A stretch of 64,000 nucleotides of DNA from Solirubrobacter deserti. GTDB taxonomy: Bacteria; Actinomycetota; Thermoleophilia; Solirubrobacterales; Solirubrobacteraceae. The stretch covers positions 62,001 through 126,000 of the forward strand of contig NZ_JAPCID010000010.1 of the NCBI RefSeq assembly GCF_027587175.1, read 5' to 3'. Position 1 is the first letter of the stretch. Each line of letters begins with the position of its first letter. Positions 1 through 10,737 of the stretch are shown one piece after another. The position numbers were made by a program, and so were the translations under genes. The notes below the pieces were generated by a model. The model was not told the DNA's origin. It was given only the letters and a program-made list of their open reading frames with translations, and did no database searches.

Positions 1-423
1 TTCGCGATCGACCTGCCGGAGGACGTCGAGCTGGTCGACCAGCCGGGCACGTTCCTGGTCGCCCGCGACGGGAGCGGCGCATCGCCCTTCCGCGCCAACC
101 TGACCGTCGTCGCCGAGCAGCTGCCGGAGCCGATCACGCTCGACGAGTACACCGCGCTGGGCGTGGAGCTGCTCGAGCGGCGCGTGCCCGGGTTCCGGCT
201 GATCGACCGCGCCGCGACGACGCTCGCCGGGCACGCCGCCGAGCGGACGCTCGCGACCTACCTCGTCGACCTCGAGCGGCCGGTCTCGGTCACGCTGGAG
301 CAGTGGCGGTTGCTCGTGGACGGCGCGGCGTGGATCGTCTCCTGCTCGTGCGACACCGCCGAGTACTGGCAGGCGGCGGAGGCGTGGACGGCGTGCGCGG
401 AGTCGCTGGAGGTCGCGCGATGA
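1..423 (+). CDS. DcrB/LpqN-like (DUF1795) protein, 5' end outside window
   Basis: The reading frame is open from base 1 and ends at TGA 421-423, so at least 140 residues are present and the N-terminus is missing. The pattern of a central PGF segment, then a hydrophobic strand, then a WIVSCSC strand and a final helix with Y/W/F residues matches the DcrB/LpqN fold as I know it (mycobacterial LpqN lipoproteins; DUF1795 Eag chaperones of type VI secretion). That family match is from memory of the pattern, not from a search. The stop overlaps the next start (ATGA), so the gene is translationally coupled to the two genes after it and belongs to the type VII secretion locus. A signal peptide cannot be judged because the start is outside. 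A role as a secretion-associated chaperone or envelope protein is inference. Confidence 0.6.
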   Translation, partial: FAIDLPEDVELVDQPGTFLVARDGSGASPFRANLTVVAEQLPEPITLDEYTALGVELLERRVPGFRLIDRAATTLAGHAAERTLATYLVDLERPVSVTLEQWRLLVDGAAWIVSCSCDTAEYWQAAEAWTACAESLEVAR

Positions 424-1094
424 TCGAGTTCGAGGAGGCGCACGGCGACCTGCGCGCCCGCGTCGAGGTGATCGACTGGGTCTTAGGCGAGCGTGACGCG
501 CCGCCCGAGGACGCCGGCGTGCTGCTGGTCGACGGCGCGCTGCACCCGCGGCTGCAGGCCGCGCGGGAGATCGTGCGCGCCCCGCTCGCCGAGCTGTGGA
601 TGGAGCGCGGAGACCGGCGCGGCCGCGGCTGGGTGAGCCCGCGCGGGAGCGTGCTCGCGCATCCGCTTCCGGACGGCCGGATGCGGCTCGTGACCGTGCG
701 CACGCCGCTGGTGATCGACGCGCTGGTGCGCCTCAACGACGTCGGCCCGCGGCCGCGCTTCGAGCCGGCGATCCGGATCGCGGTCGCCCCGGCCGCGCTG
801 GCCGAGGCCCTCGCCGCGCGCGAGGCGGTGCGCGCCGGCATCGCCGACCCCCAGCAGGCGGCGGCGTTCGAGCGCGTCGTGGCCGGCCTGCGCGAGCACT
901 GGCGCGTCTCGGCCACCTGGGAGCCCGCCGACGGCGCGCTGGGCGGCCGCGACATCGAGGTACTGGACACCGAAGACGGGTATTGGCTCGTCATCCCCGA
1001 CGATCCGACAGTGGAGCTCTGGCCGGCCACGCCGACGGCGGTCTTCCGCGGGCTGTGCGGCCTGCTGCCCACGTTCGAGGAGGTGCGTTCGTGA
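420..1094 (+). CDS. EspG-like type VII secretion-associated protein (tentative)
   Basis: This is a 224-residue protein with no signal peptide or membrane segment. The ATG at 420 overlaps the preceding stop by ATGA. Residues ~75-105 hold a run of strands ending in a LVRLND-GPRP segment, the middle is a helical Ala/Glu-rich region, and the end carries a HWRVSATW strand followed by EVLDTEDGYW and a terminal helix. This order resembles actinobacterial EspG proteins, cytosolic chaperones that hold ESX substrates, but the similarity is distant and judged by eye. Its place between a DcrB-like gene and a membrane protein, upstream of WXG100 and EccC genes, supports a secretion role. It could equally be an unrelated locus-specific protein. 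Confidence 0.5.
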   Translation: MIEFEEAHGDLRARVEVIDWVLGERDAPPEDAGVLLVDGALHPRLQAAREIVRAPLAELWMERGDRRGRGWVSPRGSVLAHPLPDGRMRLVTVRTPLVIDALVRLNDVGPRPRFEPAIRIAVAPAALAEALAAREAVRAGIADPQQAAAFERVVAGLREHWRVSATWEPADGALGGRDIEVLDTEDGYWLVIPDDPTVELWPATPTAVFRGLCGLLPTFEEVRS

Positions 1095-1627
1095 CCTTGC
1101 GGCCTGGCATCACGGCGCGCGTCGTGTTCTTCGTGCTCGCCCTCGCCCTGTTCGCCCTGGGCGTCGGCGCGCTGTTCTCCAACCCGGTCGTGGGCGCGAT
1201 CGGCGTCGCGCTCTTCGGCTTCGCGCTGGTGAACGCGAGCTTCCGGCTCTTTCACCCGCGGTCGTACGCGACCGTCGTGGGGGAGGACGGCTTCCGCGTC
1301 CACGACTGGCGCGGCCGCCTCGTCCACGACGTGGCCTGGAGCGAGCTCTCGCACCTGACCGTCTTCGGAGGCAACGGGCTGCGCGGCCCCGGCTCGCTGT
1401 TGTTGCTCGCCTGGCGCTGCGAGCCCCGCCGCCCCGGTCCCGGCCGCCAGCCCTGGTCGGGCGGCGGCACCAACGCCATGGGGGAGGCCTTCGACGGCGC
1501 GCTGCCCGCCGCCTACCTGGGCGCCGAGCGCATGCTCGAGCTGTTCAAGGACCGCGCCGAGCGCGCCCACGTGGCCGGCCACCGCGCCCCGCAGCGCGTC
1601 GGCGACATCCGCCTCGAGCCGTTCTGA
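1091..1627 (+). CDS. Two-TM membrane protein with cytosolic PH-like domain
   Basis: This is a 178-residue protein. The GTG start at 1091 overlaps the previous stop (GTGA), which fixes the start. Two hydrophobic segments lie at about residues 9-27 and 30-47, followed by a soluble part with alternating strands (YATVVGEDGFRVHDW, then VAWSELSHLTVFG), a layout typical of bacterial PH-like membrane proteins. A tryptophan/glycine-rich loop and a C-terminal helix follow. It is the last gene of the three-gene forward unit and is followed by a hairpin terminator. Function is unknown; an accessory membrane component of the neighbouring type VII system is inference from context. Confidence 0.7.
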   Translation: MTLRPGITARVVFFVLALALFALGVGALFSNPVVGAIGVALFGFALVNASFRLFHPRSYATVVGEDGFRVHDWRGRLVHDVAWSELSHLTVFGGNGLRGPGSLLLLAWRCEPRRPGPGRQPWSGGGTNAMGEAFDGALPAAYLGAERMLELFKDRAERAHVAGHRAPQRVGDIRLEPF

Positions 1628-1682: not shown

Positions 1683-1970
1683 TCAGTGGAAGCTGGACGC
1701 GACGCTCTGCTCGGTCTGCTCGTAGTTCACGCCCGCCTGCTGCGTGAGCTGGCTGATGCCCGTCAGGGCTTCCTGGATGCCGCGCGACGAGCGCTGCCAC
1801 TCGGCCCACAGCTCCTGGAAGCGCGCCTGCGCGACGCCCTGCCACTCCGACTGCAGCGGCGCGACCTGGCCGGCCAGCTGGGAGAGCGTGGACTCGATGT
1901 TGGCCGCGCCCGCGTTGAGCTGGGCGCCGATCGACTGCAGCTGCTCGGGGGTAACAGCGATGTTGGGCAT
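1683..1970 (-). CDS. WXG100 family type VII secretion substrate (EsxA/EsxB-like)
   Basis: This is a 95-residue, all-helical protein, the usual WXG100 length. The turn motif is present as W43-Q44-G45, a conservative variant of WXG, flanked by two long amphipathic helices. A C-terminal Y83-x-x-x-E87 matches the YxxxD/E export signal of ESX substrates. A GGAGG sequence lies about 12 nt before the start codon at 1970. It is transcribed divergently from the EccC gene 87 bp away. No second esx gene is adjacent, so it may form homodimers as in Firmicutes-type systems; that is inference. Confidence 0.92.
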   Translation of the reverse strand: MPNIAVTPEQLQSIGAQLNAGAANIESTLSQLAGQVAPLQSEWQGVAQARFQELWAEWQRSSRGIQEALTGISQLTQQAGVNYEQTEQSVASSFH

Positions 1971-2057
1971 TGGTGGATGTGCCTCCCTTTAGTGCAAACG
2001 TCAGATGAGGCGTACCCCGGGTCCCGAGCGGGAACACACCTTTCCAGTTCGACGACG

Positions 2058-5000
2058 ATGACGAGGCCCCAGACGGACACCCTGCACCGCCCGCCGCGGG
2101 CGTACCCGCCGGCGGTGCCGAGCGACAAGCTGCGCCTCGCCGCACCCCCGACCGAGCCGCAGCCGCCGCAGGTCGGGATCATCAGCCTGCTGTTCCCGGT
2201 GGTCGGCGGCGTCGGCATGCTCGGCTTCGCGATCGCGTACGGCTCCAGCACGTTCCTCTACATCGCCGGCGCGATGATCTGCCTGCTGCTGCTGTTCTCG
2301 ATCGGCATGCGCTGGTCGCAGAAGCGCATGGTGCGCAAGCGTGCGGCGGCGGACGCGCGCCGCTACGCCGACTACCTGCGCCAGACCGACCGTGAGCTCG
2401 CCGTCGCGGGTGAGCTCCAGCGCGGCGCCCTCGCCCGCCTGTACCCCGAGGCCAAGCAGCTGTGGACGCAGCTGGTCAAGGGCCGCGACGTGTGGGAGCG
2501 CCGTCCGCACGACAAGGACTTCCTGCACGTGCGCATCGGCGAGGGCACCGTGGAGCTCGACAAGCAGGTCGAGTTCGACCTCGGCATGAACGTGCTGGCC
2601 GAGTATCAGAAGCAGTCGCTGCACGAGGCCAAGCGGCTGATCGAGCGGCGCACGAAGCTGCGCAACGAGCCCGTGGTCGTGGACCTCGCGGACTGCGGCG
2701 TGCTGGCGGTCACCGGCGAGCGCACGCGCGCCCGGGCGTGGGCCCGCGGGCTGATGGTCCAGCTCGCGGCGGCTCGCGCGCCGCACGACCTGCGCCTGAT
2801 CACCTACTTCGAGGCCGAGCACGCGACGGACTGGGAGTGGGGGAAGTGGCTCCCGCACCAGCGCGTGGATCCGGGCGCGGGCCCGTCCGCGGGCTTGACG
2901 CTCACCCGCACGCCCGCCGAGCTCGAGGCGCTGCTCGAGCGCGAGCTCAAGCCGCGCGCCGACCACCTGCGCCGGCTCTCCGAGGCCGACTCGCACACGC
3001 GCCGGAACTTCGAGCTGGCCGCGCCCGAGCTGGTCGTGCTCGTCGACGGCTTCACGCCCGACGGCGAGATCGCGGGCGGTACGTCGTTCAAGGAGCTGCT
3101 GGCCCGGGCGCGCGAGCTCAAGTGCGTGCTCGTGCTGCTCGCGGACGCGCGCGAGCTCGAGCCTTCGCACATCGACGCCCGCCTGACGGTCCCCGAGCGC
3201 GGGCTCGGCGGCTGGGAGGTCTGGGGCCAGGACGCGCCGTCGATCCCGGAGGTGCGCATCGACGAGGTGGACCTCGGGATCGCGGAGGCGATCGCGCGCA
3301 CGCTCGCGCCGCTGCGCCTGGCCGAGGGCGACAGCGACGGCGAGCGCGGGCTCGGCGCGTCCGTCCGGCTCGTCGAGCTGCTCGGCGCCGACGGCGTCGA
3401 GGCGGTCCCGCCCGCGCCGCCGCACCGCCCGCGTGAGCAGGCGCTGCGCGCGCCGATCGGGCGCACCAAGACCGGCGAGGTCCTGTGGCTGGACCTCAAG
3501 CAGGCGGCCGAGGAGGGCATGGGCCCGCACGGCGTGCTGGTCGGCGCGACCGGCTCGGGCAAGTCCGAGCTGCTGCGCTCGCTCGTCGCGGGGCTGGCCG
3601 CCACGCACGACCCGGAGCAGCTCGCGTTCGTGCTCGTCGACTACAAGGGCGGCGCGGCGTTCGCGGAGCTCAGCCGCCTGCCGCACGTGGCGGGCATGAT
3701 CACCAACCTCTCGCAGGACCTCTCGCTCGTGGACCGTATGCGCGACGCGCTGATCGGAGAGCAGGAGCGCCGCCAGACGATCCTGCGCGAGGCGGGCAAC
3801 GTCGACGACATCGTCGACTACCAGCAGCGCCGGCTCTCGGACCCGTCGCTGCCGCCGCTCCCGGACCTGCTCGTGATCGTCGACGAGTTCGCCGAGCTCC
3901 TCGCCGCGCGGCCCGAGTTCATCGACCTGTTCGTCGGCATCGGCCGGGTCGGCCGCTCGCTCGGCATCCACCTGCTGCTGTCCTCCCAGCGCCTCGACGA
4001 GGGCCGGCTGCGCGGCCTGGAGTCTCACCTGCGCTATCGCATCTGCCTGCGCACGTACTCCTCGGTCGAGTCCAAGCTCGTGCTCGGCACGCCCGACGCC
4101 TACCTGCTGCCGTCGGTGCCCGGCCTCGGCTACCTGAAGGTGGACACAAGCCACTACGAGCAGTTCCGTGCCGCCTACTCGTCCGCGCCGGCGCCCGCCG
4201 AGGTGGACCTGAGCCAGCCGCTGCCGGTGCGCGTGTTCGACACCCAGGCCGTGGACCAGGACGAGCCGGTGGTCGCCCCGGTCGCCACCGGCGCGAGCGA
4301 GCTCAAGCTGCTCGTCGACCGGCTGGCCGCGGGCCGCGAGCGCGTGCACCAGGTGTGGGTGGACCCGCTGTCGGAGGCCGAGCCGCTCGACGCGGTCCTC
4401 GACGCGCCCCCGTTCTGGCGCGGCGGCAACCCGGGACTGAAGGCCACCGTCGGCCGCCTGGATCTGCCCGCCGAGCAGCGCACCGAGCCGTACACCCTTG
4501 ACCTCACCGGCGCCGGCGGCCACGTCGCGATCGTCGGCGCGCCGCGCACGGGCAAGAGCACCGCGCTGCGCACGCTCGCCGCGTCGCTGATCCTGCGCCA
4601 CGCGCCCAACCAGGTGCAGCTGTACGCGATCGACCTCGGCGGCGGCGCGCTCGCGCCGCTGCGGCACGCGCCGCACGTCGGCGGCATCGCCGGCAAGCTC
4701 GACCGCGAGGCGATCCCGCGCGTCGTCGCCCAGCTGCGCGGGGAGATCGAGGACCGCGAGCTGCTGTTCCGCGACCGCGGCTGGGAGGGCATGCGCGACG
4801 CCCGCGCGGCCGCCGACGGCGTCCCGGACATCGTCCTGCTCGTCGACGGCTGGGAGGTGTTCAAGCGCGAGTTCGAGGGCTTGGACCGCCAGGTCGAGGA
4901 GCTCGCCGCGGCGGGCCTGAGCTTCGGCGTGCACGTCGTCGTGGCCGCGAACCGCTGGGCCGAGATCCGGCCGGCGCTGCTGGACAATCTCGGCGCGCGG

Positions 5001-5936
5001 CTGGAGCTGCGCCTCAACGACGCGATCGACTCGCTGGTGAACCGCAAGGCCGCCGAGGCGCTGCCGGACGTCGCGGGCCGCGCGCTCACGCCGGGCGGGC
5101 TGCACGTGCAGCTCGCGCTCCCGCGCGTGGACGGCGAGCACAGCGACGAGGGGATCGGCGACGCGCTGACGATGATCGCGCGCCAGGCCGCCGAGCACTG
5201 GGACGGCAAGCGCGCCGATCCGATCCGGCTGCTCCCGCGCGTCCTGCACAGCGTGCCCGCGCCCGACGAGCACGGCATCGCGATCGGGATCGAGGAGCGC
5301 GCACTCGAACCCGTCCGCGTGGACCTGCTCGAAGGCGACCCGCACCTGCTCGTCTTCGGCGACGCCGAGACCGGCAAGTCCTCGCTGCTGCGTACGCTCG
5401 CCCACGGCCTGCCCGACGACGTGCGGCTGACGGTCGTGGACGTGCGCCGCTCGCTCGCCGACCTGGCGGACGCGGCCCACCAGTACGCGACCAACACGCT
5501 GCAGGCGCAGGAGGCGGCGAACGCCCTCCAGCGCGAGCTGTTCCCGCGGCTGACCACGCCCGACCCGGACGGCCCGCGCCACGTCGTGCTGTTCGACGAC
5601 TACGACCTGTCCACCGGGCCGACCGGCGGGCCGCTCGCGCCGCTGCTCGACCTCGTCGCCGTCGGCCGCGACATCGGCCTGCACGTCGTGCTCACCCGCC
5701 GCGTCGGCGGCAGCGCCCGCGGGCTCTATGAGCCCGTCTTCGCCCGCCTGCGCGAGCTGGGCTCGCCCGGGCTGATCATGAGCGGCGATCCGAGCGAGGG
5801 CGCGCTGCTGCCGGGCGTCAAGGCCGCCCCGCAGCCGCCCGGCCGTGGCCTGCTCGTCCGCCGCGGCGAGCGCCCATTGCTCGTCCAGACCGTCTTCACC
5901 CCCGCCGGACATCTCGCCAAAGAGGGAGCCAGATGA
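2058..5936 (+). CDS. eccC: EccC-type FtsK/SpoIIIE ATPase of type VII secretion
   Basis: This 1292-residue protein is the motor that docks and pushes WXG100 substrates through the membrane complex. The N-terminus has a proline-rich stretch and two adjacent membrane segments (about residues 39-60 and 63-84). Three FtsK-like ATPase modules follow. The first has Walker A GATGSGKS (496-503) and a proper Walker B ending D609-E610. The second has GAPRTGKS (827-834) with a degenerate Walker B (LLVDGWE), and the third has GDAETGKS (1101-1108) with LFDDYD. The fused EccCa+EccCb arrangement matches single-chain EccC proteins outside mycobacteria. The ATG at 2058 was chosen because upstream sequence in this frame antisenses the WXG100 gene. 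Its stop overlaps the next gene by ATGA. Confidence 0.93.
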   Translation: MTRPQTDTLHRPPRAYPPAVPSDKLRLAAPPTEPQPPQVGIISLLFPVVGGVGMLGFAIAYGSSTFLYIAGAMICLLLLFSIGMRWSQKRMVRKRAAADARRYADYLRQTDRELAVAGELQRGALARLYPEAKQLWTQLVKGRDVWERRPHDKDFLHVRIGEGTVELDKQVEFDLGMNVLAEYQKQSLHEAKRLIERRTKLRNEPVVVDLADCGVLAVTGERTRARAWARGLMVQLAAARAPHDLRLITYFEAEHATDWEWGKWLPHQRVDPGAGPSAGLTLTRTPAELEALLERELKPRADHLRRLSEADSHTRRNFELAAPELVVLVDGFTPDGEIAGGTSFKELLARARELKCVLVLLADARELEPSHIDARLTVPERGLGGWEVWGQDAPSIPEVRIDEVDLGIAEAIARTLAPLRLAEGDSDGERGLGASVRLVELLGADGVEAVPPAPPHRPREQALRAPIGRTKTGEVLWLDLKQAAEEGMGPHGVLVGATGSGKSELLRSLVAGLAATHDPEQLAFVLVDYKGGAAFAELSRLPHVAGMITNLSQDLSLVDRMRDALIGEQERRQTILREAGNVDDIVDYQQRRLSDPSLPPLPDLLVIVDEFAELLAARPEFIDLFVGIGRVGRSLGIHLLLSSQRLDEGRLRGLESHLRYRICLRTYSSVESKLVLGTPDAYLLPSVPGLGYLKVDTSHYEQFRAAYSSAPAPAEVDLSQPLPVRVFDTQAVDQDEPVVAPVATGASELKLLVDRLAAGRERVHQVWVDPLSEAEPLDAVLDAPPFWRGGNPGLKATVGRLDLPAEQRTEPYTLDLTGAGGHVAIVGAPRTGKSTALRTLAASLILRHAPNQVQLYAIDLGGGALAPLRHAPHVGGIAGKLDREAIPRVVAQLRGEIEDRELLFRDRGWEGMRDARAAADGVPDIVLLVDGWEVFKREFEGLDRQVEELAAAGLSFGVHVVVAANRWAEIRPALLDNLGARLELRLNDAIDSLVNRKAAEALPDVAGRALTPGGLHVQLALPRVDGEHSDEGIGDALTMIARQAAEHWDGKRADPIRLLPRVLHSVPAPDEHGIAIGIEERALEPVRVDLLEGDPHLLVFGDAETGKSSLLRTLAHGLPDDVRLTVVDVRRSLADLADAAHQYATNTLQAQEAANALQRELFPRLTTPDPDGPRHVVLFDDYDLSTGPTGGPLAPLLDLVAVGRDIGLHVVLTRRVGGSARGLYEPVFARLRELGSPGLIMSGDPSEGALLPGVKAAPQPPGRGLLVRRGERPLLVQTVFTPAGHLAKEGAR

Positions 5937-7249
5937 ACAACACCGCCGCCGTCACCATCGCGGGGCCGGACCGCAAGGTGGACCTCGTGGTGTCCACCGA
6001 GACGCCGCTGCAGGAGCTGATGCCCACGTTCGTGGAGCTCAGCGCCGACGAGGCGCCCGACGGTCCGGTGTGGAGCGTCGCGCCTCCCGGCCGCGAGCCG
6101 CTGCCGCTCGAGCGCACGCTCGCGCAGAGCGACGTCACGGACGGCACGGTGTTGCAGCTCGTCCAGCTGCGCTCGCAGGCGTTGGCGCCGCCGAGCCCGG
6201 CGGCGCTGCGCGTGCCGGAGGAGCCGTCGCGCGGCACGCCGCGCCAGCGCACCGAACAGGCACTGCCGGAGGCGCTGGGCAAGGGCGCCCGGATGAGCGC
6301 GGCGATCAGCGCCTTCTTCGGGCACGAGGAGGAGCCGCCGATCGTCGAGTCGGCCGAGCCGCGGCAGGTGACCAACCGCGAGGTGCTCACGCGCCCGGCG
6401 CAGAAGGGCGCGATGGAGCGCGCCAAGGCGGCGTGGCGCGAGTCCGACTACCAGGGCCGGCTGAACCGGACGATCGCCGCGCCGCGGCTCACGCGTTGCG
6501 CGACGATCGCGGTCGTCTCGCCCAAGGGCGGCGTCGGCAAGACGACGCTGACGGTCCTGCTCGGCTCGCTGCTCGCCCGCGAGCGCCGCGACCGCATCGT
6601 CGCCGTGGACACCAACCCCGACTACGGCTCGCTCGGCCGGACGCTCACACCCGACCACCAGGTGTTCGTCGACGACCTCGGCGACCTGCTCGAGCAGCCG
6701 GACCTGTCGGTGACGTCGCTGGACCGCCGGCTCGGCCGCGCGATCGAAGGTCTGATGGTCTTGCCCGCGCCGACCGACCCGCAGCGCATGGCCCGCCTGG
6801 ACGAAGATGCTTACCTGCGCGTGATTCGGCGCCTGCAGACGATGGTCGGCGTGCTCGTGCTCGACTGCGGTACCGGCCTGCAGGAGCCGGCGGCGCGCGC
6901 CGCGCAGGCGTGCGCGGACCAGCTCGTGCTCGTCTCGGACGCGCACCCGTCGACCGCGTCCTTGGTGACCGAGGCCGCCGAGCTGCTGCGCACGGTCGGC
7001 CCACCGATGACGCTCGCGGTCAACAAGATGCCCGACAAGAAGGCCGCGCAGATCGATCTCGACGGCCTGGACGCGCTCGTCCCGGACGCCCAGGGCCTGG
7101 TCTGCATCGATGACGAGCCGGCGGCGGCCGCGCGCGTGGCCGCCGGCGACTTCACCTGGGACGACGCGCCGGCGAGCTGGAACCGTCAGGTCCGCGAGCT
7201 CGCCGTCACGTTGCAGGCCGACTGGGACCGGCTGGGGCTGGCCGGCTAG
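5933..7249 (+). CDS. YukD-like ubiquitin fold fused to MinD/ParA-type ATPase
   Basis: This 438-residue cytosolic protein starts at an ATG overlapping the eccC stop. Residues ~1-82 resemble the YukD/EccD N-terminal ubiquitin-like domain (VDLVVSTETPLQELMPTFVEL and a final VLQLVQL strand). Residues ~85-190 are a proline/charge-rich linker. The rest is a MinD/ParA-type ATPase with the deviant Walker A KGGVGKTT (198-205), a VLDCGTG Walker B-like strand and a LAVNKMPDKK segment. MinD-like ATPases such as EspI are known in mycobacterial ESX-1, and YukD is known as a separate protein or as the EccD N-terminus. Having both in one chain next to EccC is unusual. A role in regulating EccC or positioning the secretion complex is inference. 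Confidence 0.85.
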   Translation: MNNTAAVTIAGPDRKVDLVVSTETPLQELMPTFVELSADEAPDGPVWSVAPPGREPLPLERTLAQSDVTDGTVLQLVQLRSQALAPPSPAALRVPEEPSRGTPRQRTEQALPEALGKGARMSAAISAFFGHEEEPPIVESAEPRQVTNREVLTRPAQKGAMERAKAAWRESDYQGRLNRTIAAPRLTRCATIAVVSPKGGVGKTTLTVLLGSLLARERRDRIVAVDTNPDYGSLGRTLTPDHQVFVDDLGDLLEQPDLSVTSLDRRLGRAIEGLMVLPAPTDPQRMARLDEDAYLRVIRRLQTMVGVLVLDCGTGLQEPAARAAQACADQLVLVSDAHPSTASLVTEAAELLRTVGPPMTLAVNKMPDKKAAQIDLDGLDALVPDAQGLVCIDDEPAAAARVAAGDFTWDDAPASWNRQVRELAVTLQADWDRLGLAG

Positions 7250-10200
7250 GGGTTGGTGGTGGACAGGGTGAAGGTCACCGTCTTGGAGTAGGTGCCCGTT
7301 CGCAACGGGTCGGTGCGCTTGATCAGCTGCCGGAAGGTGACGTCGACCTCGTCGTTGCTCACCGGCTCGTTCCAGGTCGTCTTCTCCAGCTCGACGCGGA
7401 GCGGCTCGGCGAGCGTGAACGCGCCGTTGGTCATGTGGCCGGGGTTGCTGACCGACAGCGTCGCGTCACCCGCGGTGGAAATCACCGTCGCGGTGGTCGT
7501 CGCCGTGTAGTCCATGGTGATCCCGGGCGTGAACGGATCGAAGCGCGCCGCCGGACCGAGCGTGAGCGACAGCGTCGCGGGCACCGTGCCGCCCACGGTG
7601 CCGCTCGCAACGGTCACCGGCACGTCGAACGCCTGCACCTCGTCCTGCGCGTTGACGAAGGAGACGAGCAGCGAGACGCCCTTCTCCAGCCGCTTCGCCG
7701 CTTCGGCGCTGATCGGGAGCGACAGCGTGCTCGCGCCCACGGCCACGTCGAACGTCCTGCTCGCCAGGACACCGCCCATCATGTCCGGCGCCCACGGCGG
7801 CGTGGAGCCGTCGGCGGCGCTGCACGCGCTGAGCCCGTAGTCCGGCGCCGGGTTGGTCGCCGGGTCACAGCTCGTGTTCCACACGCGCGTGTAGCCCTTG
7901 TTGCCGTCCCGCGGGTCGACGCCGTACAGGAACAGCCGCGCCTTGCCGGCGGCGCCCGCGGTGACCTTCAGGTCGACGGTGCCGGGTGAGGCCGTCCAGC
8001 CCGTGATCGTCAACCCGCGGGCAGCGGGCGCCGGCTCGCGGCCGGAGATCGGCACGCCGTTGCGCGCGGACTGGGCGATCGTCTGCGGCGAGTCCGCGCT
8101 GTCGAGCGGGCTCGCGAGCTTGGGCTCGGCGGGCGTGGTCGGGCGGCCCGCCGGCGGCGTGTAGCCCGGCAGCGTCGCGCGGCCCCAGCGGTACGGGTCC
8201 GACTGCACCGAGCCGAACGTGGCCCACGCCAGGCGCGTGCTCATGTCGATGTGGCGCAGCACGGTCGAGCCGGTCCCGGCCGTGTTGTCGTCGTTGTCGT
8301 AGGGCGTGATGTTCAGGCCCATCCGCTCCGGATCCACGGCGGCGGGGAGAATCGCCATCGGGACCTTGACCTCGAGGTTGTAGCCGCCGCCCGCGTAGGC
8401 GTGGCTCGTGCCGACGTCGTTGGTGCCGACCCACGTCGCGGTGGACTTGACCTGCACGCCGGGCGCGTTCGGGCCGTCCGGGATCGTGGCCGCGAGCGGG
8501 CCGGTGGAGTAGCCCTGGTGGTTGTCGGCGTCACGCGACCAGCACGGGCCGTTGACGCCGTTGCCGTTGCGGTTGGCCGGGTCGTTGGTGAACGGGAAGA
8601 CCGCGAGCTTGAACGTGTGCGCGGTGTCCATCGCGTTCTCGGACGCCCGCCCGCGCGGGTCGATCAGGATCTCGACCGAGTCCGCCAGCCAGTGCCCGAC
8701 GCACTCCTCGGGCGTGACCGCATAGCTCTGGAAGTCGTCCTGGACGCGGATGAAGAAGTACAGGTCGTCGCCGGAGCGGGTGACCTTCGCGTACGTCTGG
8801 TTTGCTCCCGCCGAGCCGCAGTCGACGCCGAGCGGCACGCAGTCGCGCGTCGCGCCGCCGGGCTCCCACTTCTTGCCGACGTCGAGCGACTCGCCGGTGT
8901 ACTCGCCGGCGCCCTCGGCGCCGTCGAGCGTGGGCGTGGCGCCGGCCGGGATCGACGTCTTGGGCACGATCGCCAGCGTCAGGTCCTCGAACCCGGTGCC
9001 GTTGCCGTTGTAGGTCGTCGTGATGCGCACGTTGACGTTCGTGTTGACCTGCTGGCCCGGCGGGTTGCCGGGGTTGGTGGTCGGCAGCGTCGCGTTCGTG
9101 AAGCTGTTGGAGACGCTGAAGTTCACGGTCGTCTCGGCACCGGGCGCGAGCGTCGCGTAGGGCTTGCTCGTCGCGTCGGCGGCCAGGCCGGCCGGGAGCG
9201 TCAGCCGCACCTCGCCGCTCTGCGGCTCGTCCGACCAGTTGTGGACCTTCACCGGCAGCGTGAAGGTCTCACCGGCGGCGGTCGTCTGCACGGCGCCGGA
9301 GCGGCCGATGCGGCGCGCGAGCGGCGCCGTCTCCTCCGTCCACTGGTCGTACTCGGCGAACTTGCCCCAGCGCTGGAACAGGCCCTCGACGGGCGAGACC
9401 ACGCGCACGACCTGGTCCGTGTAGCCCTTCGCGCCGCCGGCCGTCCAGGTGGCGGAGACCTTGTAGTTGGTGTTGACCGCGGCGGTCGCGCTCGGCGTGA
9501 CCGTGAACGTCACGGTCTGCCCGCCCGTGCCCACGGCGGGGACGGGCTTGGCCGCGTCCACCGTCCAGCCGGCCGGGACGTTGAGCGCCACGGAGCCGGC
9601 CGGGATCGTCCCGGACGGCGCCTTCAGGTGCACGGTCGCTTGGAACGGTCCGCCGGGCGTGTTGTAGAAGTCGCTGAAGGTGAGGTACTGGAGCGTCCCG
9701 AGCGGCAGCCCGCCCGGGTCGGGCTTGACGGCGCCGTAGAGGATGGCGTCGTCCTTACCGGCCGCCGCGTTGAGCGAGCCGTCCGGGTTCACGTTGGGCT
9801 GGAACGGGACGAAGTTGCCGGTCATGCCGAAGCGCGAGCACCCCGGCGCCTGCAGCTCCTTGAACATCACGCGGCTCTGCGTCGGGTAGGCGCGCGTGCC
9901 CTCCATCGCCACCTGCGCCCACGTCTTGGCCGTGCCCGCGGGCTGGCCCTGGACGTTGCCCGGCGGCCAGCGGTACGGGGACGCGTAGCCCGTCCACACG
10001 CCGGACACGTTGTCCAGGCCGGTGGGCGTGAAGCCCGTCGTGCAGTCCGGGGCTGAGGTGGTCCCGCCCGTGCCCGCGGTCGCGCCGCCGGAGAAGACCT
10101 TCTTGACCTGCCAGGTGGAGAGCGCGTTCGGGCCCGTCAGCTGCTCCGGGAACATCGTCGGATCGGCCGCGGCCTGCATCCCCTCCCAGATGTACCGGCC

Positions 10201-10692
10201 GGCCTGCTGATGGTTGCCGTGGCCGGCGGCGAGCGAGGGCGTGAAGCCGACGTAGATGTCGGGCTGGGTCATGCGGATGATCCGCGTGATCCGGCGCAGC
10301 GTCTCGTCACCCCAGAAGTACTGCGTGAGCGGCGCGCTCTGGTTGTAGAAGAAGTCGACCTGGTCGATGTTGAAGATGTCGACCGTGCCGGACCGGTAGT
10401 GCGCGACGCGATCCTCGTTCTCGCGCCGCAGGCCAAGCGCCGGGCCGAGCTCGGTGCCGGTGGCGTTGCCGCCGCCCTCGCCGCGCGTGACCATGATGAT
10501 CCCGCACTTGACGTCGTAGCGGGCGTGCCAGACGCCGCACGGCCCGATGATGCTCGTGTCGTCGTCAGGATGGGCCCACTCGCCCATGACGTTGATCTTC
10601 ACCGCCTCGCTCGCGGTGTACGGCGCGGCTGAAGCGGCTCCCGGCGCGCACAGCGCCGCCGCCAGGACCATCGCAAACGACCAACGTCTCAT
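7246..10692 (-). CDS. Secreted multidomain PIG-L family deacetylase
   Basis: This is a 1148-residue secreted protein. The ATG at 10692 is chosen because GGAGGAGAGG lies just upstream and a signal peptide follows directly (cleavage near ASAAP, residues 20-24). A PIG-L deacetylase domain comes first, with the zinc motif A40-H-P-D-D-D45 and a second histidine pair at H158/H161. Next come two NEW3/CARDB-like beta domains (about 350-570), then a CBM9/DOMON-like domain (about 595-810) carrying the typical SVEILIDPRG strand. A Cys-containing region follows, and the last ~116 residues are a module also found at 20697-21041. PIG-L enzymes remove N-acetyl groups from glucosamine-type substrates; the CBM9-like part suggests a glycan target. 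Its stop overlaps the convergent gene's stop. Confidence 0.88.
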   Translation of the reverse strand: MRRWSFAMVLAAALCAPGAASAAPYTASEAVKINVMGEWAHPDDDTSIIGPCGVWHARYDVKCGIIMVTRGEGGGNATGTELGPALGLRRENEDRVAHYRSGTVDIFNIDQVDFFYNQSAPLTQYFWGDETLRRITRIIRMTQPDIYVGFTPSLAAGHGNHQQAGRYIWEGMQAAADPTMFPEQLTGPNALSTWQVKKVFSGGATAGTGGTTSAPDCTTGFTPTGLDNVSGVWTGYASPYRWPPGNVQGQPAGTAKTWAQVAMEGTRAYPTQSRVMFKELQAPGCSRFGMTGNFVPFQPNVNPDGSLNAAAGKDDAILYGAVKPDPGGLPLGTLQYLTFSDFYNTPGGPFQATVHLKAPSGTIPAGSVALNVPAGWTVDAAKPVPAVGTGGQTVTFTVTPSATAAVNTNYKVSATWTAGGAKGYTDQVVRVVSPVEGLFQRWGKFAEYDQWTEETAPLARRIGRSGAVQTTAAGETFTLPVKVHNWSDEPQSGEVRLTLPAGLAADATSKPYATLAPGAETTVNFSVSNSFTNATLPTTNPGNPPGQQVNTNVNVRITTTYNGNGTGFEDLTLAIVPKTSIPAGATPTLDGAEGAGEYTGESLDVGKKWEPGGATRDCVPLGVDCGSAGANQTYAKVTRSGDDLYFFIRVQDDFQSYAVTPEECVGHWLADSVEILIDPRGRASENAMDTAHTFKLAVFPFTNDPANRNGNGVNGPCWSRDADNHQGYSTGPLAATIPDGPNAPGVQVKSTATWVGTNDVGTSHAYAGGGYNLEVKVPMAILPAAVDPERMGLNITPYDNDDNTAGTGSTVLRHIDMSTRLAWATFGSVQSDPYRWGRATLPGYTPPAGRPTTPAEPKLASPLDSADSPQTIAQSARNGVPISGREPAPAARGLTITGWTASPGTVDLKVTAGAAGKARLFLYGVDPRDGNKGYTRVWNTSCDPATNPAPDYGLSACSAADGSTPPWAPDMMGGVLASRTFDVAVGASTLSLPISAEAAKRLEKGVSLLVSFVNAQDEVQAFDVPVTVASGTVGGTVPATLSLTLGPAARFDPFTPGITMDYTATTTATVISTAGDATLSVSNPGHMTNGAFTLAEPLRVELEKTTWNEPVSNDEVDVTFRQLIKRTDPLRTGTYSKTVTFTLSTTNP
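7249..7596 (-). repeat. Repeated C-terminal surface module, copy A
   Basis: This stretch encodes the last 116 residues of the PIG-L protein. It aligns end to end with the last ~115 residues of the DUF1080 protein (20697-21041), about three quarters identical by hand count. Shared blocks include VGGTVPATLSL, TTATVISTAGDA, TNGAFTL and LRTGTYSKT, and both end in TFTLSTTNP. It is all-beta with no membrane anchor. Confidence 0.9.
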
Positions 10693-10711
10693 GCGGCCTC
10701 TCCTCCCACAC

Positions 10712-10737
10712 TCGAACCCCATCGAACGACATCGAAC
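10712..10737. promoter_or_regulatory. Three direct TCGAAC repeats at 10-bp spacing
   Basis: TCGAAC occurs at 10712, 10722 and 10732, exactly one helical turn apart, between the PIG-L start and its likely promoter. A TAAGTT box on the reverse strand (forward 10752-10757) could be the -10, which would place the repeats in the leader. The spacing suggests cooperative binding of a regulator on one DNA face; this is inference. Confidence 0.5.

What the first reader, a model, noticed from the sequence alone, without database searches (positions are those of the whole stretch)
5933..7249. YukD ubiquitin-like domain fused to a MinD/ParA ATPase beside EccC
The N-terminal ~82 residues look like YukD/EccD-N and the C-terminal ~245 residues carry KGGVGKTT. 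YukD and MinD-like EspI are separate proteins in described T7SS systems. The fusion, coupled to eccC by ATGA, suggests a soluble ATP-switched regulator that docks on EccC or positions the secretion complex. I do not know of a described system built around this protein.
Basis: partly seen in the sequence, partly recalled or inferred. Interest (0 to 1): 0.75.

Follow-up and report, generated by a model that had tools for sequence, protein, structure and literature searches.

The report
Ubiquitin-like/MinD fusion beside secretion ATPase
A bacterium's stripped-down type VII secretion locus carries a soluble protein that joins the ubiquitin-like docking piece normally found on the membrane protein EccD to a MinD-type ATP switch, and this fusion sits with the secretion motor in some bacteria but is kept without it in others.

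Summary
Window 5933-7249 encodes 438 residues: a ubiquitin-like domain closest to EccD's (residues 1-80), a linker, and a MinD/ParA ATPase with intact KGGVGKTT (198-205). It overlaps eccC by ATGA, with a divergent WXG100 gene nearby. I found 11 such fusions, one clade of a MinD tree (100/97). Six lie in a cluster with eccC, directly after it in two (the window and L193); one is read across two contigs. Those six genomes have WXG100 over cut-off, but no EccB or EccE, and no EccD or mycosin over cut-off. Where a gene overlaps the eccC end (4 checked), it begins with a YukD-like domain, fused to MinD in two. The other five fusions are orphans; four of their genomes show neither EccC nor WXG100 over cut-off. 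Most likely the ubiquitin-like domain docks on EccC in place of the EccD arm, and MinD adds an ATP-dependent dimer or positioning switch. Docking is inferred, and one eccC-coupled fusion, plus another clade member beside eccC, has a degenerate ATP site. The papers searched listed no such protein. New variant of a known kind.

The parts
5933..7249 (+). YukD-MinD fusion, 438 aa
5933..6172 (+). residues 1-80: ubiquitin-like domain of EccD-N/YukD type
   Evidence: Pfam YukD 57.9 bits; model and fold search
6173..6397 (+). residues 81-155: linker with two predicted helices (103-110, 117-129) and a pattern that most fusions share (by eye)
   Evidence: alignment A2 and model; function unknown
6398..7246 (+). 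residues 156-438: MinD/ParA-type ATPase domain
   Evidence: hmm range, VIA-align Z 25.8 to 1g3q
6524..6547 (+). deviant Walker A KGGVGKTT, residues 198-205
5933..5936 (+). ATGA overlap of eccC stop and fusion start
2058..5936 (+). eccC, 1292 aa, two TM segments and three FtsK/SpoIIIE stretches
   Evidence: TIGR03924 693.6 and TIGR03925 648.3 bits for the frame 1971-5936; Pfam; gene and TM calls
1683..1970 (-). WXG100 protein, 95 aa, divergent from eccC
   Evidence: TIGR03930 74.5 bits, cut-off 44.85
1091..1627 (+). small membrane protein: one 46-residue hydrophobic stretch, weak STM3941-family match (17.6 bits, cut-off 40)
   Evidence: membership in the system inferred from position
420..1094 (+). 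224 aa protein without family match
   Evidence: membership inferred from position
1..423 (+). DcrB-like protein (27.0 bits, cut-off 27.2); its start lies upstream of the window in L002
   Evidence: membership inferred from position

Best explanation
It is the soluble ubiquitin-like subunit of a reduced actinobacterial type VII secretion system in whose genome no EccB, EccE, EccD membrane domain or classical mycosin was found. SHOWN by computation: an EccD-N-type ubiquitin-like fold, a MinD-type ATPase fold with intact Walker A, a four-base overlap with eccC, one clade of such fusions. INFERRED: the ubiquitin-like domain docks on the membrane-proximal DUF/first nucleotide-binding region of EccC, as the EccD arm does in ESX-3 and ESX-5, so the fusion replaces the arm that EccD would supply. 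INFERRED: the MinD domain dimerises with ATP, pairing or placing EccC units and gating assembly by nucleotide state. Where the ATP site has decayed, only the scaffold role can remain.
For: The domain's closest folds are EccD ubiquitin-like domains, and so is its best non-fusion sequence match (L203_9). In ESX-3 these contact the EccC DUF (PMC6986878, passages); [quoted passage not shown] In the 4 loci checked for it, the gene following eccC with a four-base overlap begins with a YukD-like domain: window and L193 (fused to MinD), L070 and L071 (without MinD; weak matches, Pfam 24.4 bits and own profile 17 bits). In the 6 genomes with fusion and eccC in one cluster, EccB and EccE are absent and no EccD or mycosin passes its cut-off, while controls G480 and G428 are positive. 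WXG100 over cut-off occurs in exactly these 6 of the 11 fusion genomes. eccD, a MinD gene and eccC are separate neighbours in G480 (L203). Fusion clade 100/97.
Against: Five of 11 fusions are not with eccC, and four of those genomes show no EccC or WXG100 over cut-off, so the protein has some use without the system. The Walker A is degenerate in L193_2, which directly follows eccC, and in L229_1. L070, L071 and G381 carry both a separate YukD-like protein and the fusion, so there the fusion is not the only ubiquitin-like subunit. G380 has, on another contig, an EccD-like hit below cut-off (65 bits) that covers most of the model (1-405 of 455) near an EccC fragment. In G421 the WXG100 gene is not on the eccC contigs. 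The VIA-align margin over other ubiquitin-like folds is small. No complex was modelled and no interface residues were compared. What forms the membrane pore is not explained.
Confidence: 0.5

Rival explanations
1. It works like mycobacterial EspI: a MinD-type protein that reports ATP level and restrains EccC, the ubiquitin-like domain being only its tether.
For: MinD-like genes stand in or near ESX loci: after EccA in L105 (EccA, EccB, EccE by NCBIfam), after an EccA-like gene in L146 (by eye), and about 4 kb from eccC in L077. EspI is described as a negative regulator of ESX-1 tied to ATP (PMC12663572, passages citing Zhang 2014; the original was not held).
Against: None of the 9 rows that I labelled EspI-like falls inside the fusion clade (100/97); M. 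tuberculosis EspI itself was not in the tree. Two clade members beside eccC have lost the ATP motif, which does not suit an ATP sensor.
Confidence: 0.2
2. The clade's core job is independent of type VII secretion (a positioning or partition ATPase with a ubiquitin-like adaptor, perhaps toward FtsK), and its place with eccC is a secondary recruitment.
For: G124 (93% complete), G157 (96%), G583 (89%) and G378 keep fusions but have no EccC and no WXG100 over cut-off. All five orphans have an intact ATP motif.
Against: Orphans share no gene neighbourhood that I could see. Of the 7 fusion genomes with EccC (6 over cut-off, G421 just below it and split over contigs), 6 have the fusion in the eccC cluster, and the seventh (G377) has another member of the clade there. 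The ubiquitin-like domain is closest to EccD's.
Confidence: 0.2
3. The MinD domain is only a structural dimeriser and the protein is a passive scaffold for EccC, with ATP irrelevant.
For: Degenerate Walker A in L193_2 (eccC-coupled) and L229_1.
Against: KGGxGKTT is intact in 10 of 11 fusions, the window included.
Confidence: 0.1

Closest known systems
EccD of T7SSa (ESX)
   Same: N-terminal ubiquitin-like domain: best fold and sequence relatives
   Different: The multi-TM domain is absent and a MinD ATPase follows instead; no TM segment by hydropathy
YukD/EsaB/TsxB of T7SSb and most other subtypes
   Same: Soluble ubiquitin-like protein encoded near the EccC/EssC ATPase
   Different: Those are small single proteins (PMC11217815, passages); here fused to MinD and closer to EccD-N
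EspI (ESX-1) and the MinD-like proteins of ESX loci
   Same: MinD-like ATPase in or near ESX loci, with an N-terminal extension
   Different: Outside the fusion clade of the MinD tree; no YukD domain found in the EspI-like gene calls
CpaE/TadZ of Tad pili (recalled)
   Same: Adaptor domain followed by a MinD-type ATPase; a SAF-domain membrane protein stands beside the fusion in L070 and L071, with a below-cut-off CpaB match in L070 (44 of 71 bits)
   Different: CpaE's N-domain is receiver-like (recalled), not ubiquitin-like; L071_8 reaches SAF but not the CpaB model

Membership tests
YukD/EccD-N ubiquitin-like domain | ubiquitin-like fold with sequence match to the family | tested here: met
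   Pfam 57.9 bits vs 27; folds of the predicted model
MinD/ParA ATPases | deviant Walker A KGGxGKTT and SIMIBI fold | tested here: met
MinD/ParA ATPases | C-terminal membrane-targeting helix of MinD | tested here: inconclusive
   amphipathic helix 414-428 (moment 0.48), but it is the last helix of the predicted fold
T7SS in general | EccC/EssC ATPase and WXG100 protein at the locus | tested here: met
T7SSa (ESX) | EccB | tested here: not met
   0 of 11 fusion genomes; controls G480 and G428 positive
T7SSa (ESX) | full EccD with TM domain | tested here: not met
   G000: only the fusion's N-terminus matches (45.9 bits). Over cut-off in 1 of 11 (G377); G380 has a 65-bit hit over 1-405 of 455 on another contig
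T7SSa (ESX) | EccE (absent from some ESX-4) | tested here: not met
   0 of 11; controls positive
T7SSa (ESX) | mycosin MycP | tested here: not met
   no match over cut-off in 11 genomes; many below-cut-off subtilase-like hits; controls positive
T7SSb | EssB/YukC | tested here: not met
   0 of 13 genomes searched; Bacillus subtilis control positive
T7SSb | EsaA, EssA | not tested
   no search left
T7SSc-T7SSj | ATPase clade and accessory genes of PMC11217815 | not tested
   their ATPases were not fetched or placed in a tree
EspI | MinD domain grouping with EspI-like proteins of ESX loci | tested here: not met
   fusions are their own clade (100/97); the 9 EspI-like rows lie in an 18-row group (94/81) with unlabelled rows
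EspI | ATP-level control of export | not testable with these tools
   experiment

The most novel reading that the evidence does not exclude
A distinct actinobacterial type VII secretion subtype made of EccC, WXG100 and a soluble ubiquitin-like/MinD fusion, without EccB, EccD, EccE or mycosin, in which an ATP-switched soluble adaptor takes over the EccD arm. Its EccC branches outside the ESX group, and the adaptor has a second life in genomes that lost or never had the secretion system.
Probability: 0.35. Interest if true: 0.78.

Novelty: new variant of a known kind. Interest (0 to 1): 0.6.

Why it matters
Nearly all described type VII systems (T7SSd is the stated exception, PMC11217815) have a ubiquitin-like domain whose job is unclear: EsaB/YukD alone, or built into EccD. 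A natural fusion of that domain to a MinD-type switch, in a locus without the usual membrane partners, would show that the ubiquitin-like domain is a portable EccC-docking unit. It would also make its role testable with two soluble proteins. [quoted passage not shown]

Tried and rejected
Chance or frame artefact: rejected, the same chain recurs in 11 genomes.

EccD remnant by a broken frame: rejected, there is no TM segment in the protein and a full MinD domain follows in frame.

Origin of the fusion from a neighbouring eccD plus an EspI-like gene: not supported, since the MinD domain does not group with the EspI-like rows.

Sequence homology of the 488 aa upstream protein to the similar-sized L071_3: not among its hits at E<1.

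Function of orphans from context: no shared neighbours seen.

Sampling limits. (order, 231 genomes): 15 YukD hits, 10 over cut-off; 4 are fusions (G000, G124, G157, G287). Of the rest, G081, G242 and G256 were fetched but my gene calls gave no YukD gene there, and G272 was not fetched. One search kept 80 of 273 relatives and I gene-called 16 of the 80. One search matched 48 of 396 genomes; I fetched 18 regions, of which L195, L200, L201 and L202 gave no relative in my gene calls and were not used. G685 (match from position 87) and other hits starting further in were not fetched. The trees left out duplicates, fragments and some distant ParA rows. A first genome-contig scan with the single protein found nothing. 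B. subtilis YukD is not among the 50 rows shown. One search's motif search printed the wrong place for L193_2; its Walker A was read.

Full report
What is there. Window 5933-7249 (+) is one 438-residue frame. It starts four bases inside the end of eccC (ATGA, 5933-5936) behind a ribosome-site-like aagagggag. Pfam gives YukD (6-76, 57.9 bits, cut-off 27) and CbiA (192-231). NCBIfam EccD matches only residues 7-84. The AlphaFold model has mean pLDDT 86. The first domain predicted alone (mean pLDDT 83) has EccD1 and chains of ESX-3 complexes as its eight best Foldseek matches. Its seven best VIA-align rows are EccD chains of ESX-3/ESX-5 entries (6sgz_E, Z 12.7, rmsd 2.0 over 82 residues); other ubiquitin-like folds start at Z 11.1, so the margin is small. 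Chain identity rests and entry titles. The ATPase part matches MinD/ParA (1g3q, Z 25.8, rmsd 2.5 over 231). By sequence too, the best non-fusion match to the fusion YukD profile is an EccD (L203_9, 54.9 bits), and PDB chains of EccD1 are found.

Surroundings. eccC is 2058-5936 (+), with both EccCa and EccCb models over cut-off. WXG100 is 1683-1970 (-). Upstream on the strand of eccC lie a DcrB-like protein, a 224 aa protein and a small protein with a long hydrophobic stretch. Beyond the window (locus L002) come a 488 aa protein with a weak WXG100-like N-terminus and a 95 aa EspC-like frame. In the own genome only this YukD hit is found at E<=0.001.

Relatives. brought in ten more proteins with the same two domains: L034_8 (G124, the same contig as L068), L035_13 (G157), L056_12 (G287), L067_5 (Dormibacterota MAG, G377), L069 (G378), L070_7 (G379), L071_9 (G380) and L072_1 (G381), the last two from MAGs labelled Streptosporangiaceae, L192_7 (G583) and L193_2 (G421). 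L069, L071 and L072 needed N-terminal extension of my gene calls; the start codon of L069 is a guess. In a tree of 57 MinD domains these 11 are one clade (100/97), and none of 9 EspI-like rows lies in it. A second tree adds one more member, L229_1 of G377, whose start is cut by the contig end (12 rows, 98/96). Within the clade, copies with and without eccC are interspersed.

Association with secretion. The fusion directly follows eccC with a four-base overlap in the window and L193. In L070 and L071 eccC, a YukD-like gene (again overlapping by ATGA), a SAF-domain CpaB-like membrane protein and the fusion follow one another (SAF 30.7 and 22.7 bits, cut-off 21). In L056 the order is fusion, a second MinD gene, WXG100, eccC. 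G381 has the L071 order across a contig break: eccC and the first part of the YukD-like gene in L228, the rest, the SAF protein and the fusion in L072. The YukD-like matches of L070_5 and L071_7 are weak (Pfam 24.4 bits, cut-off 27, for the first; own profile 17 bits and no Pfam match for the second). Five fusions (L034, L035, L067, L069, L192) have no eccC in the 14-21 kb read.

Whole-genome tests on the 11 fusion genomes, with G480 and G428 as positive controls. EccC is over cut-off in G000, G287, G377, G379, G380 and G381. In G421 an eccC-like gene runs to the end of contig C35 (501.6 bits, cut-off 509.15), and its end probably opens contig C263 before the fusion. G124, G157, G378 and G583 give only 56-107 bits; gene lengths of 749-837 aa in three of them (and, by eye, neighbours in G124 and G157) suggest FtsK; G583 was not inspected. 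EccB 0 of 11. EccE 0 of 11. Mycosin over cut-off 0 of 11. EccD over cut-off 1 of 11 (G377); G380 has a 65-bit hit over 1-405 of 455 on contig C268, near an EccC fragment. EssB 0 of 13, with B. subtilis positive. WXG100 is over cut-off in exactly the six genomes with fusion and eccC in one cluster (in G421 on other contigs); no hit in G124, G378 and G583; 24.5 bits in G157 and 30.8 bits in G377. Completeness is 93% (G124), 96% (G157) and 89% (G583); for G378 it is not given.

Mechanism. [quoted passage not shown] EsaB is essential for export in S. aureus RN6390 (PMC5845737, passages). With no EccD found and a YukD-like domain translationally coupled to eccC, the simplest reading is that this domain docks on EccC. 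The MinD part would then add ATP-dependent dimerisation or placing. Against a universal ATP step, L193_2 and L229_1 have degenerate Walker A motifs, while 10 of 11 fusions keep KGGxGKTT. Against a purely secretory role, four genomes keep the fusion without detectable EccC or WXG100.

Unfused counterpart. In G480 (L203) eccD, a MinD gene and eccC are separate neighbours. In G377 (L229) a member of the fusion clade, eccD and eccC are neighbours, but the start of that member lies off the contig, so whether it has a YukD domain is unknown. The MinD gene of L203 is a long branch on the EspI-like side, so it is a functional parallel, not a proven ancestor.

EccC tree (16 rows): under a midpoint root the window's EccC lies outside the 8-row group that holds the ESX rows (99/99); its exact place relative to L056's is weakly supported (84/82).

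Literature. Nine searches, with YukD, EccD, EspI, MinD, ParA, Thermoleophilia and EccC among the terms, listed no paper on a YukD-MinD fusion. I judged by listings (capped: 15 of 225, 15 of 33, 10 of 64 and 10 of 16) in one open library. PMC11217815 (abstract, sections 7, 12 and 16, and passages) describes subtypes T7SSc-j, holds no word beginning with MinD or EspI, and notes Tad pilus genes beside T7SSg and T7SSh. [quoted passage not shown]

Verdict. A real fusion with one clade and a genuine new variant of type VII parts. The docking mechanism is plausible but untested, and not every member works with EccC.

Noticed in passing
L226 10659-16486 (own genome, contig C390): A second T7SS-like locus: protein kinase gene followed by an EccC-like protein with an N-terminal FHA domain, preceded by a YukD-like stretch judged by eye (a YukD hit in a similar gene of G346 scores 23.9 bits, cut-off 27), with weak WXG100-like hits and a weak DcrB-like gene nearby.
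   Followed up: partly
L058, L060, L061, L057: Stand-alone YukD-like proteins beside E1/ThiF-like genes and, in L058, a JAB gene (ThiF 170 bits, JAB 47.6 bits in L058): bacterial ubiquitin-like operons in the same order, not T7SS. The other three were judged by eye.
   Followed up: partly
L056 11010-11960: A second MinD-like ATPase gene directly after the YukD-MinD fusion and before WXG100 and eccC.
   Followed up: partly
L070 3-3779: A tubulin-like (Tubulin_2, 197 bits) gene and a VWA-like protein (by eye) next to the WXG100-eccC-fusion locus.
   Followed up: no
L070 9209-9895; L071 8172-8897: SAF-domain, CpaB-like protein between the YukD-like gene and the fusion, recalling the unexplained Tad pilus genes beside T7SSg and T7SSh.
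   Followed up: partly
L063 1715-2896: A 393 aa protein with a weak N-terminal YukD match (21.6 bits, cut-off 27) and, by eye, a TM and extracytoplasmic part.
   Followed up: no
L037, L039: MinD-only relatives of the fusion among genes that look like a conjugation apparatus (by eye; no family search).
   Followed up: no
window 7246-10722 (-): PIG-L deacetylase-like protein with a CBM9-like domain, convergent with and overlapping the fusion end by four bases.
   Followed up: no
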